Source: Ignavibacteria bacterium
GTDB lineage: Bacteria > Bacteroidota > Ignavibacteria > Ignavibacteriales > Melioribacteraceae
Direction of reading: 5' to 3'
Length of the DNA stretch: 64,000 nt
NCBI GenBank assembly: GCA_009773205.1
Contig: WPAE01000006.1
Location: forward strand, 1-64,000
Part shown: one piece after another, positions 6,783 through 57,861 of the stretch
How the letters are laid out: the number at the start of each line of letters is the position of its first letter
Numbering within the stretch: the first letter of the stretch is position 1
The notes under the pieces: generated by a model
Database searches by the model: none
What the model saw: the letters and a program-made list of their open reading frames with translations, nothing else
Told to the model about the DNA's origin: nothing
Translations under genes and position numbers: made by a program

Positions 6783-7154
6783 TTGAGCAAACTATTCAAA
6801 GATATTATCTACCTGCCTGAATTTGAGAAAGACAAAAAGAAGTTATTAAAACGATTTCGGACACTTGATGAGGACTTAGAAACCTTCATCAATATTCAGT
6901 TAAGACTATTTCACAAACTTGGAATAGACAATAATGCTGTTGAACATATAAGTGATTTGGGAATCACTGAACCCAAGATTTACAAGGTAAAAAAATTTGC
7001 TTGTAAGTCTCTTAAAGGAAAGGGTGTCCTATCCGGTATAAGAATAATTTACTCATATTCTCTTGATCACGACAAAATCGAATTCGTAGAAATCTATTAC
7101 AAAGGGGATAAACAAAACGAAGACCGTGAAAGGATTAACAAATTGTATAAATGA
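6783..7154 (+). CDS. RelE/ParE-superfamily toxin partner
   Basis: Starts 7 nt after the antitoxin stop (TTG start); IYKVKKFACKSLKGKGVLSGIRIIYSYS...IEFVEIYYKGDKQNEDRERI. Confidence 0.75.
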   Translation: MSKLFKDIIYLPEFEKDKKKLLKRFRTLDEDLETFINIQLRLFHKLGIDNNAVEHISDLGITEPKIYKVKKFACKSLKGKGVLSGIRIIYSYSLDHDKIEFVEIYYKGDKQNEDRERINKLYK

Positions 7155-7285
7155 GCCGAATCTAACCCGCCTGCCTCTTTAGACCAAACATGGTGGTCAG
7201 GAAAGGTTAGTTTGACAATTTCTGGTTACGATTTCCTGCCCGCCAAGATTAGACTGATGAGGCAGGCGGGTTAGATTCGGCTCAT
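7151..7285. mobile_element. MITE-like inverted-repeat element (27-bp perfect terminal inverted repeats)
   Basis: ATGAGCCGAATCTAACCCGCCTGCCTC at 7151-7177; exact reverse complement at 7259-7285; half copies at 31793 and 52603. Confidence 0.75.
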
Positions 7286-36052: not shown

Positions 36053-36151
36053 TTAATCCGCCAGAGGCGGACGAGGGTCAAATTCCCCGCCTCTTGAGGC
36101 GAATAAATAAAATTTGTTTTCAGAAACCTCGCTGCCCCGCCTGCCAAAGCA
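36053..36151. repeat. 99-bp palindrome-containing repeat, intergenic copy
   Basis: 98/99 identical to 55704-55802; contains TCCGCCagaGGCGGA and CCGCCTCttGAGGCG inverted repeats. Confidence 0.92.
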
Positions 36152-52529: not shown

Positions 52530-52602
52530 AATATTTTAAAATACTCTAAAATTCTGCCATAATATACGTATCGAAAAAAATGAATTGCAACAGTATTTAT
52601 AA

Positions 52603-52632
52603 ATGAGCCGAATCTAACCAGCCTGCCTCTTT
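52603..52632. repeat. Half copy of the 7151 inverted-repeat element
   Basis: atgagccgaatctaaccagcctgcctcttt; one mismatch to the 7151 arm. Confidence 0.8.
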
Positions 52633-53229
52633 ATACCGTTACCACAAGAGTAAAGAAGTTTTTTCTTGTTAAGCATTACACGTTCAGTTATCTCATCAGA
52701 AAAGTAGGTGGAATATTTGTGTAATGTAATGCTTCAGATGAAAATGGAATTTCCTAAATTACCATTATGTAAAACTAAAGGAGAATTTTATTCGGCAAAG
52801 AAAACATTATAAAGCTAACAAAAAGTAATTATTTGTTTCGTCTGCTTAAATCTCTATACCAAAGCTGTTTACTTCAAAACAAAGAGCGCTGAACAAATAA
52901 AAACAGCTTGATTTTCAAGTATACATTAAAAACCAAACACAAAGCTGAAAAATCTTCGAGAGCTAATTGTAAATCATTCAAAAATTTTAACGCGGAGTGC
53001 ATTAAAAAAACGTAAAAGTTGTTAATACGATTTTACGTAATAAATACAAAGTGCTGTTAATTACAAAACAACTTTTGACATAGATACATCCATGTAAAAT
53101 GCACTGGACAGTTCTGGCGCGTCTCTACAGAGCAGTGTTTTTTCTACAGATTAACACAGAAGTATTTACGCTTGTTGAGTAAATGTGATTTTAAATACCG
53201 ACAAATGCAGACACAATAAAAAGGAAGTT

Positions 53230-55678: not shown

Positions 55679-56752
55679 ATGAAAAATAATAACGAACACA
55701 AGTTTAATCCGCCAGAGGCGGACGAGGGTCAAATTTCCCGCCTCTTGAGGCGAATAAATAAAATTTGTTTTCAGAAACCTCGCTGCCCCGCCTGCCAAAG
55801 CATTACTGTTATTGAAAAAAATACTTTCTATTTCTATAATCCTGTGTTTCAAGAAAAATATGAAAGCTACATTAATTCTTTGACAGAGACTTTGTTAGTT
55901 CTTAAAAATAAAGTGGAGACACAAGGATTAAAAAAAGAAATATTTGAAAACTTATTGAAAGAAAAGGAAAATGGTCTTAAGGCTCTATTAGCCTTGACTG
56001 GCTTTGCAAATGAATCGTTAAAAAGATTAGTTACAGTTTTACGAGTTTCAGAAAATAAAGAACTTTCAACTCTCTTATACAAAAGTAAATGGGCTGAAGA
56101 AGGGAATAACGCTGAAATAATTGAATGGACAGACACAAAAATTGCTAAATTATTAGCTGATAATGTTTACTTCCGGAAGGGAATTATCAATCTATTTTTT
56201 GAAGGTTCCACCATTCCTTATTTAACCAATACACTTCCTCTTTTTGAACTTAAAAAACTAAGTATCTCTAAGCTCCAGTTCAATACTCACTCTTTACTAG
56301 ACACTTTAGTTCGTTATAAAGAAAAAGGTTCCTATTCTGGGAAAGCCGACAATAACCCAGAAAAATTAATTTCATCACTAATTAAAGATTGTGAATTGAC
56401 TTCTGAAAAAGGTGATTTAACTGAACTATTTAAGAAAGAAAAAATTTCAAAACGAACGATGGATTTTATTATACCAAATAAAATTAATCCTAAAGTAATT
56501 ATTGAAAGTTCGTTTCTTGTTACAACTTCTTCCGGACAAGGTGATAAATCAAAAACAGAAGGGACAATTAAAAGATTAATTAGAAAATATTATCCCAAAG
56601 CAAAGTTTATCGGATTTGTTGATGGAATCGGATGGTACGTTCGGAAAGGAGATTTAGCAAGAATGGTAAGTGCTTACGATGATGTATTTACTTTTCATAA
56701 AGATGAGGTTGAAAGATTTAAACAATTTCTCAAGAGTGAATTTCAAGTATGA
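55679..56752 (+). CDS. DpnII-like type II restriction endonuclease with repeat-derived N-terminal segment
   Basis: GLKALLALTGFANESLKRLV; FLVTTSSGQGDKSKTEGTIKRLIRKYYPKAKFIGFVDGIGWYVRKGDLARMV...DDVFTFHKDE. Confidence 0.82.
   Translation: MKNNNEHKFNPPEADEGQISRLLRRINKICFQKPRCPACQSITVIEKNTFYFYNPVFQEKYESYINSLTETLLVLKNKVETQGLKKEIFENLLKEKENGLKALLALTGFANESLKRLVTVLRVSENKELSTLLYKSKWAEEGNNAEIIEWTDTKIAKLLADNVYFRKGIINLFFEGSTIPYLTNTLPLFELKKLSISKLQFNTHSLLDTLVRYKEKGSYSGKADNNPEKLISSLIKDCELTSEKGDLTELFKKEKISKRTMDFIIPNKINPKVIIESSFLVTTSSGQGDKSKTEGTIKRLIRKYYPKAKFIGFVDGIGWYVRKGDLARMVSAYDDVFTFHKDEVERFKQFLKSEFQV
55704..55802. repeat. 99-bp palindrome-containing repeat inside the DpnII-like CDS
   Basis: 98/99 identical to 36053-36151; 33 codons, reads through in-frame as FNPPEADEGQISRLLRRINKICFQKPRCPACQS. 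Confidence 0.92.
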
Positions 56753-57861
56753 TTGAAAAATATTTAAATAAAATTATTTCAGGCGATTGCTTACAGCTAC
56801 TCAAGAAGTTACCCGATAATTCGGTTGATGTTACATTTGCAGATCCGCCTTTTAATTTGAAAAAGAGTTATAACAGTTACAAGGACAGCTTGAGCTTGCA
56901 AGAATACTTAAACTGGTGTGAACAGTGGATAACAGAACTAGTTCGAATAACAAAACCAACGGGTTCAATATTTATTCATAATATTCCCAAGTGGTTGACC
57001 TATTATGCAGCTTTTCTAAACAGACAAGCAGATTTTAAGCATTGGATAAGCTGGGATGCGCCAACTGCTCCTATGGGAAAATCGCTTCAACCGGGTCATT
57101 ATGGAATATTATTTTATGCGAAGGATTCCAAAAGATTGAAATATTATGAAATTCGACATCCTCACAAGAGAACAAGAAAAACCGGTTTGCTTGCTAAAGA
57201 TTACGGAGGCAAAAAATCATTACTTCATCCTTTTGGTCCATTAGTATCTGATGTCTGGACAGATATTCATAGGATAAAACACAACAAGTTTAGGGATGAG
57301 CATCCATGCCAATTACCAATTCATTTACTCGAAAGAATTATTTTAATGAGTACTGATGAAGGAGATATCGTACTTGATCCATTTATGGGCACAGGTACTA
57401 CTGCAATTGCTGCAAAACGATTAGGCAGACAGTTTATTGGTTTTGATTTAGATGAACATTATGTAAAAATTACTCAACGGAAGTTAGATTTTGAAGAGCC
57501 AAACACAAAAATTGGTAACGCTTGGGTTAGTTTTTATCTTGATGAAGTTGTTACTCTTCGAAATGCCGATTGGGATTACTTAAAAAATTATTTTCACATT
57601 CCGCCTACTGCTGAGCAAATTGATACGACTAAGATAGTACTTAAAAAAGGAAGTAAAGTTTATTCAACATTGAATGATTTATCTGTTCTGAAGTACAAGA
57701 ATAATGGGTCTAAACAACCTCATCTTTCATTGTTTGAACCGAATGTTTTGTATCACCCAAGTAATAAAAGGAAGGAAAGCAAATTGAATGAATCGGAAAA
57801 AAAGAAGTCCACTATTAAGAATTACCAATCAATGAAAAACAAAAAAACTAAGAAAAATTAA
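56749..57861 (+). CDS. Beta-class DNA adenine/cytosine-N4 methyltransferase
   Basis: ADPPFNLKKSYNSYKD (motif IV) precedes DPFMGTGTTAIAAKRLGRQFIGFD (motif I); overlaps the endonuclease by 4 nt. Confidence 0.9.
   Translation: MIEKYLNKIISGDCLQLLKKLPDNSVDVTFADPPFNLKKSYNSYKDSLSLQEYLNWCEQWITELVRITKPTGSIFIHNIPKWLTYYAAFLNRQADFKHWISWDAPTAPMGKSLQPGHYGILFYAKDSKRLKYYEIRHPHKRTRKTGLLAKDYGGKKSLLHPFGPLVSDVWTDIHRIKHNKFRDEHPCQLPIHLLERIILMSTDEGDIVLDPFMGTGTTAIAAKRLGRQFIGFDLDEHYVKITQRKLDFEEPNTKIGNAWVSFYLDEVVTLRNADWDYLKNYFHIPPTAEQIDTTKIVLKKGSKVYSTLNDLSVLKYKNNGSKQPHLSLFEPNVLYHPSNKRKESKLNESEKKKSTIKNYQSMKNKKTKKN

What the first reader, a model, noticed from the sequence alone, without database searches (positions are those of the whole stretch)
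55679..56752. Restriction endonuclease whose N-terminus is encoded by the mobile 99-bp repeat
The repeat supplies 33 residues (FNPPEADEGQISRLLRRINKICFQKPRCPACQS) with no stop, creating a CPAC motif and a basic helix-like segment in a DpnII-like enzyme. This is a second case of a palindromic repeat read through in-frame in this window, and it may alter or inactivate the nuclease.
Basis: partly seen in the sequence, partly recalled or inferred. Interest (0 to 1): 0.72.

Follow-up and report, generated by a model that had tools for sequence, protein, structure and literature searches.

The report
Mobile repeat spliced into restriction enzyme
A short jumping DNA repeat, present about 65 times in this bacterium's genome, has landed in frame just after the start of a DNA-cutting enzyme gene and adds about 33 probably floppy residues; the same repeat also re-wrote the tail of an unrelated protein (HslU), so it is a clear bacterial case of mobile DNA being turned into protein.

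Summary
A 99-bp repeat (55704-55802) lies in frame inside a 357-aa type II restriction endonuclease ORF (55679-56752), nine codons after its ATG. All 70 homologues with an ATG start 7-13 residues before the conserved TVI..NTFYFYN block; the window protein starts 42 before it. None has the insert, and the native N-terminus is conserved on both sides of it. AlphaFold gives pLDDT below 50 for residues 9-42 and a folded nuclease core behind them. The window protein has no deviation at 129 conserved positions, so decay is not visible. The repeat is a 3'-truncated copy of a ~134-bp nested-palindrome, MITE-like element with about 65 places in this Ignavibacteria genome, recently amplified. The R-M pair is an islet between yigZ and uvrA, adjacent in congeners. 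The same element frame also replaces the HslU C-terminus (KYIL* becomes KC-LLRRINKICFQKPRCPACQSKAAGRLRRGDSF*), and the reverse frame that of a DUF4956-like protein. This works like Rickettsia palindromic elements and enterobacterial RU fusions: a known kind in a new lineage. 'DpnII-like' is weakly supported, inactivation unsupported, and CPAC has no tested role.

The parts
55679..56752 (+). type II restriction endonuclease ORF, 357 aa, PD-(D/E)XK-like C-terminal core
   Evidence: Pfam DpnII 24.9 bits (cut-off 23) and BanI 27.6 bits (cut-off 28) over residues 229-354; best PDB fold BstEII, E 2.9e-4; 137 tblastn relatives in genome contigs
55679..55705 (+). native start: ATG and first codons (MKNNNEHKF), conserved in homologues as M..xxxKF(K)TVI
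   Evidence: homologue N-termini
55704..55802 (+). 3'-truncated copy (consensus 1-100 of ~134) of the mobile palindromic element, read in frame as residues ~10-42
   Evidence: absent from all homologues; pLDDT <50 at 9-42
55745..55747 (+). TTG inside the repeat: the only in-frame ATG/GTG/TTG between the ATG and the conserved TVI block; an alternative start would still give an element-encoded N-terminus
55805..56749 (+). conserved endonuclease body (TVIEKNTFYFYNP ... KSEFQV)
   Evidence: about 47-81% identity to homologues in the same phylum and beyond
56749..57861 (+). cognate N6/N4 DNA methyltransferase, 370 aa, overlapping the R stop (ATGA)
   Evidence: Pfam N6_N4_Mtase 1.7e-52; PADLOC MTase_II 4e-74; 65-79% identical M gene directly after R in homologous loci
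36053..36151 (+). second copy of the same truncated element in the window, intergenic

Best explanation
A horizontally acquired type II R-M pair sits between yigZ and uvrA. After its acquisition, a recent copy of a lineage-specific, non-autonomous palindromic (MITE-like) element of about 134 bp inserted, in 3'-truncated form, right after codon 9 of the endonuclease gene. It landed in one of its two stop-free frames with a net gain of 32-33 codons, so the frame is kept. The original ATG is still used, and the protein carries an element-encoded, mostly disordered linker between the first nine residues and the folded enzyme. The N-terminal tip is variable and short in homologues, so the insertion was probably tolerated and the nuclease is probably still active. 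The element spreads through intergenic DNA and survives in genes mainly at their ends; the same peptide has also replaced the last residues of HslU. Shown here: insertion, frame, absence in homologues, copy number, disorder prediction, intact core. Inferred: translation from the ATG, tolerance and activity, mechanism of mobility.
For: Exact repeat in ORF; about 65 element places. 70/70 homologues with an ATG start 7-13 residues before TVI against 42 here, and the alignment shows a 32-column gap exactly at the insert. The nearest relatives (81% over the core) read MANKNIVKFK-TVIDKNTFYFYN and MENKNDKNFK-TVIDKNTFYFYN. pLDDT <50 at 9-42 with a folded core. No deviation at 129 columns conserved at >=95%. 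yigZ and uvrA are adjacent without R-M in congeners; R GC 0.30 against window 0.36. Copies differ by about 1-3 mostly private changes, i.e. recent. The same peptide is at the HslU C-terminus, where 5/5 congeners end DLSKYIL*.
Against: No expression or proteomic data. A TTG inside the repeat (55745) could serve as start. A relative-rate comparison shows more unique amino-acid changes on the window branch than on its nearest relatives, compatible with mild relaxation or simply a longer branch. No transposase could be tied to the element: three Y1 transposases exist, with no clear element ends nearby.
Confidence: 0.82

Rival explanations
1. Translation starts inside or after the repeat (TTG 55745, GTG 55844 or TTG 55880/55892), so the repeat is mostly 5' untranslated sequence and the enzyme is normal or slightly truncated.
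For: A TTG lies in frame in the repeat and GTG/TTG codons follow. No ribosome-binding-site evidence was tested.
Against: The ATG and the codons before the repeat match the homologous N-terminus. There is no ATG after the first one until residue 261. Starts after the repeat would delete the TVI..NTFYFYN block, including invariant N48 and T49. A TTG start would still leave about 20 element-encoded residues.
Confidence: 0.12
2. The insertion has inactivated or is inactivating the nuclease, leaving an orphan methyltransferase.
For: The insertion is recent (copies nearly identical), so decay might not yet show; excess of unique substitutions on the window branch.
Against: The ORF is open, 0/129 conserved positions are changed, the frame is preserved, and the insert is confined to a predicted disordered tip.
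Confidence: 0.2
3. Assembly chimera at a repeat: short-read assembly joined two unrelated stretches through the repeat.
For: 476-contig assembly with about 65 near-identical repeats; the HslU and DUF4956 junctions lost the native gene end and no downstream synteny with congeners was found there.
Against: In the R gene both sides of the repeat belong to the same conserved protein and stay in frame, which a random join would not give; neighbouring yigZ, Rrf2 and uvrA are syntenic with congeners.
Confidence: 0.05

Closest known systems
Rickettsia palindromic elements (RPE), as reviewed in PMC10969869
   Same: About 100-150-bp palindromic, non-autonomous repeats with stop-free frames, found in frame in unrelated protein genes; here identical peptides in non-homologous proteins (R and HslU)
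   Different: Different lineage (Ignavibacteria); nearly all copies intergenic; the coding cases sit at gene ends; copies truncated within their hairpins; no evidence of a conserved selected peptide; sequence homology to RPEs not tested
Enterobacterial RU-1/RU-2/RU-3 intragenic repeats, PMC2759123
   Same: MITE-like 103-168-bp repeats, mostly intergenic, some fused in frame to genes
   Different: Other lineage; here about 80 homologues without the insert and a structure prediction are available
REP/BIME palindromes and REP-associated Y1 transposases (RAYT)
   Same: GC-rich palindromes in high copy; three Y1 transposase genes in the genome
   Different: No element ends clearly flank those transposases; element longer and mosaic
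Type II restriction endonucleases of the PD-(D/E)XK fold (BstEII, BbvCI; Pfam DpnII/BanI)
   Same: Fold match to BstEII and weak Pfam DpnII/BanI matches in the C-terminal core; adjacent N6/N4 methyltransferase
   Different: No PDB sequence relative; recognition site unknown; low TM-scores (0.29-0.33)

Membership tests
MITE-like / palindromic repetitive element (RPE- or RU-like) | dispersed multi-copy family | tested here: met
   about 65 places in own genome
MITE-like / palindromic repetitive element (RPE- or RU-like) | strong palindromic secondary structure | tested here: met
   full element -57.4 kcal/mol as RNA, z -4.58; truncated 99-mer as DNA z -2.79
MITE-like / palindromic repetitive element (RPE- or RU-like) | in-frame presence in unrelated protein genes, absent in orthologues | tested here: met
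   R N-terminus; HslU and DUF4956-like C-termini
MITE-like / palindromic repetitive element (RPE- or RU-like) | terminal inverted repeats and target-site duplication tied to a transposase | tested here: inconclusive
   5' end TTTAATCC and 3' end AGATTCATT are recurrent, but no clear TIR or TSD by eye; no partner transposase found
Rickettsia palindromic elements | sequence homology to RPE families | not tested
   no RPE sequence library on hand; Rfam gave no hit on the repeat
Type II restriction endonuclease, DpnII family (PF04556) | score over Pfam cut-off | tested here: met
   24.9 bits against 23, profile 173-269 of 278 only
Type II restriction endonuclease, DpnII family (PF04556) | full-length homology and GATC specificity | tested here: inconclusive
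   only the C-terminal third matches; no PDB sequence relative; specificity not testable here
Type II R-M system | cognate methyltransferase adjacent and conserved as a pair | tested here: met
   M gene overlapping R in the window and directly after R in 14 homologous loci

The most novel reading that the evidence does not exclude
The element family acts as a disperser of one stop-free peptide that is fitted onto the ends of unrelated proteins in this lineage. The HslU copy, whose conserved HslV-activating C-terminal tail is replaced, would rewire or switch off the HslUV protease, making mobile-element peptides a standing source of new protein termini outside Rickettsiales and enterobacteria.
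Probability: 0.12. Interest if true: 0.75.

Novelty: new member of a known kind. Interest (0 to 1): 0.47.

Why it matters
It is a clean, recent and checkable case of a mobile palindrome becoming protein sequence in Ignavibacteria, with about 80 insert-free homologues as reference. With HslU it gives two unrelated proteins sharing an identical element-encoded peptide, so how bacteria tolerate repeat-derived residues can be tested directly; automatic annotation would miss both.

Tried and rejected
DpnII membership as a firm label: only a weak C-terminal Pfam match. Zinc or metal role of CPAC: disordered prediction, sequence simply dictated by the DNA repeat, no evidence. Y1 transposase as the mobiliser: three genes found, no element ends clearly beside them. 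Rfam: no match to the repeat. tRNA at L012: the sequence beside the element looks like a tRNA lacking its 5' strand, and ARAGORN finds none. Plasmid collection: no R relative. In-frame fusions in 76 other genomes of the family: related elements there mostly carry stops in this frame.

Full report
OBSERVATION. The ORF 55679-56752 and the in-frame 99-bp repeat 55704-55802 are real. The other copy in the window (36053-36151) differs at one base. The genome in which the window lies (4.14 Mb, 476 contigs) holds about 65 places matching the element (merged).

THE ELEMENT. Full copies run TTTAATCCGCCAGAGG ... CCTGCCAAAGCAAAGCGGCGGGCAGGTTGCGGCGAGGAGATTCATT, about 134 bp. Of 50 distinct copies examined, 23 are full, 15 are 3'-truncated and 12 are 5'-truncated or internally deleted. 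Many of the 3'-truncated copies, the window's included, stop in the apical loop CCAAAG|CA of the large 3' hairpin. The full element folds strongly (-57.4 kcal/mol, z -4.58). Other genera of the same family carry a ~112-bp relative without the inner hairpin (L079-L082), and one genome has the inner hairpin alone (L097), so the element is a nest of palindromes. Copies differ from the window copy by about one to three mostly private changes, which points to a recent burst. Two of six frames are stop-free; for a sequence this short that is about what chance gives, so it is not evidence of selection for coding (inference).

HOMOLOGUES LACK THE INSERT. A phylum search with the whole protein found intact relatives that align, with few exceptions, only from residue 42-43; a class search with the part after the repeat found more. 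The genome-contig scan gave 80 loci; of 70 with an ATG, the ATG lies 7-13 residues before the conserved TVI block (10 in 30 cases, 9 in 23, 13 in 11). In the window it lies 42 before. The nearest relatives (81% over the core) begin MANKNIVKFKTVIDKNTFYFYN and MENKNDKNFKTVIDKNTFYFYN; the window begins MKNNNEHKF-[33 aa]-TVIEKNTFYFYN. The insertion therefore lies between two parts of one conserved N-terminus, and the ATG at 55679 corresponds to the ancestral start. The first cannot be wholly excluded, because a TTG at 55745 lies inside the repeat; but any ATG/GTG/TTG start after the repeat would cut the conserved NT block.

CONSEQUENCE FOR THE PROTEIN. AlphaFold with 50 sequences gives pLDDT below 50 at residues 9-42, and a folded helical domain plus a PD-(D/E)XK-like core behind it (mean 75). 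The best solved fold is BstEII (E 2.9e-4, low TM-score), then BbvCI. Pfam gives DpnII just above and BanI just below cut-off in the C-terminal third. The window protein changes none of 129 positions conserved at 95% or more in the others, and the methyltransferase that overlaps its stop is 65-79% identical to the M gene in the same place in 14 homologous loci. The simplest reading is a tolerated N-terminal insertion in an enzyme that was under constraint until very recently; activity itself is untested.

ORDER OF EVENTS. In congeners yigZ and uvrA are direct neighbours with no R-M genes between them, while the flanking genes are syntenic. The R gene is AT-richer than the window. The R-M pair was thus probably gained in this lineage, and the element came in afterwards (inference), since full-length copies were not found in congeners.

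OTHER CODING COPIES. HslU (contig C214) ends KNRDLSKC-LLRRINKICFQKPRCPACQSKAAGRLRRGDSF*, where five of five congeners end KNRDLSKYIL*; hslV upstream is intact and syntenic, while no downstream synteny was found. The aromatic residue third from the C-terminus of HslU matters for HslV activation in E. coli and Trypanosoma brucei (PMC4106860), so this copy may impair HslUV (inference). A DUF4956-like protein (C155; name recalled, not scanned) lost about 19 C-terminal residues to the reverse frame of a copy. Apart from R and HslU, the search with the forward-frame element peptide gave no other open frame of 150 aa or more.

KNOWN OR NEW. In-frame fusions of small palindromic elements are known from Rickettsia (RPE; reviewed in PMC10969869) and from enterobacterial RU elements (PMC2759123). 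This works like them. It differs in lineage, preference for gene ends, and truncation within hairpins. I file it as a new member of a known kind.

Noticed in passing
L138 / L257 6935-8404 (own genome C214:24937-26403): HslU C-terminus: conserved YIL* replaced by an element-encoded tail of about 33 residues; adjacent hslV intact.
   Followed up: partly
L017 (own genome C155:27681-28406): DUF4956-like protein whose last ~19 residues are replaced by the reverse frame of the element (PLCFGRRGSEVSENKFYLFASRGGEFDPRPPLAD*).
   Followed up: partly
L145 (own genome C315:1-252): Nucleotidyltransferase-like ORF broken by the element after about 40 residues, at a contig start.
   Followed up: no
L012 around 1600-1690 (C459:5789-5990): Element abuts a tRNA-like sequence with CAT anticodon whose 5' acceptor strand is missing; ARAGORN finds no tRNA.
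   Followed up: partly
L265 (C457 near 13315) and L277 (C436 near 20600): Element inserted at the very 3' end of a PriA-like gene and of a histidine-kinase-like gene, overlapping the stop codon.
   Followed up: no
window 7137-7285 and 52589-52637: Different inverted/direct repeat (ATGAGCCGAATCTAACCCGCCTGCCTC); it supplies the last codons and stop of ORF 6783-7154.
   Followed up: no
window 55679-57861: R-M pair is an islet between yigZ and uvrA, which are adjacent in congeners.
   Followed up: yes
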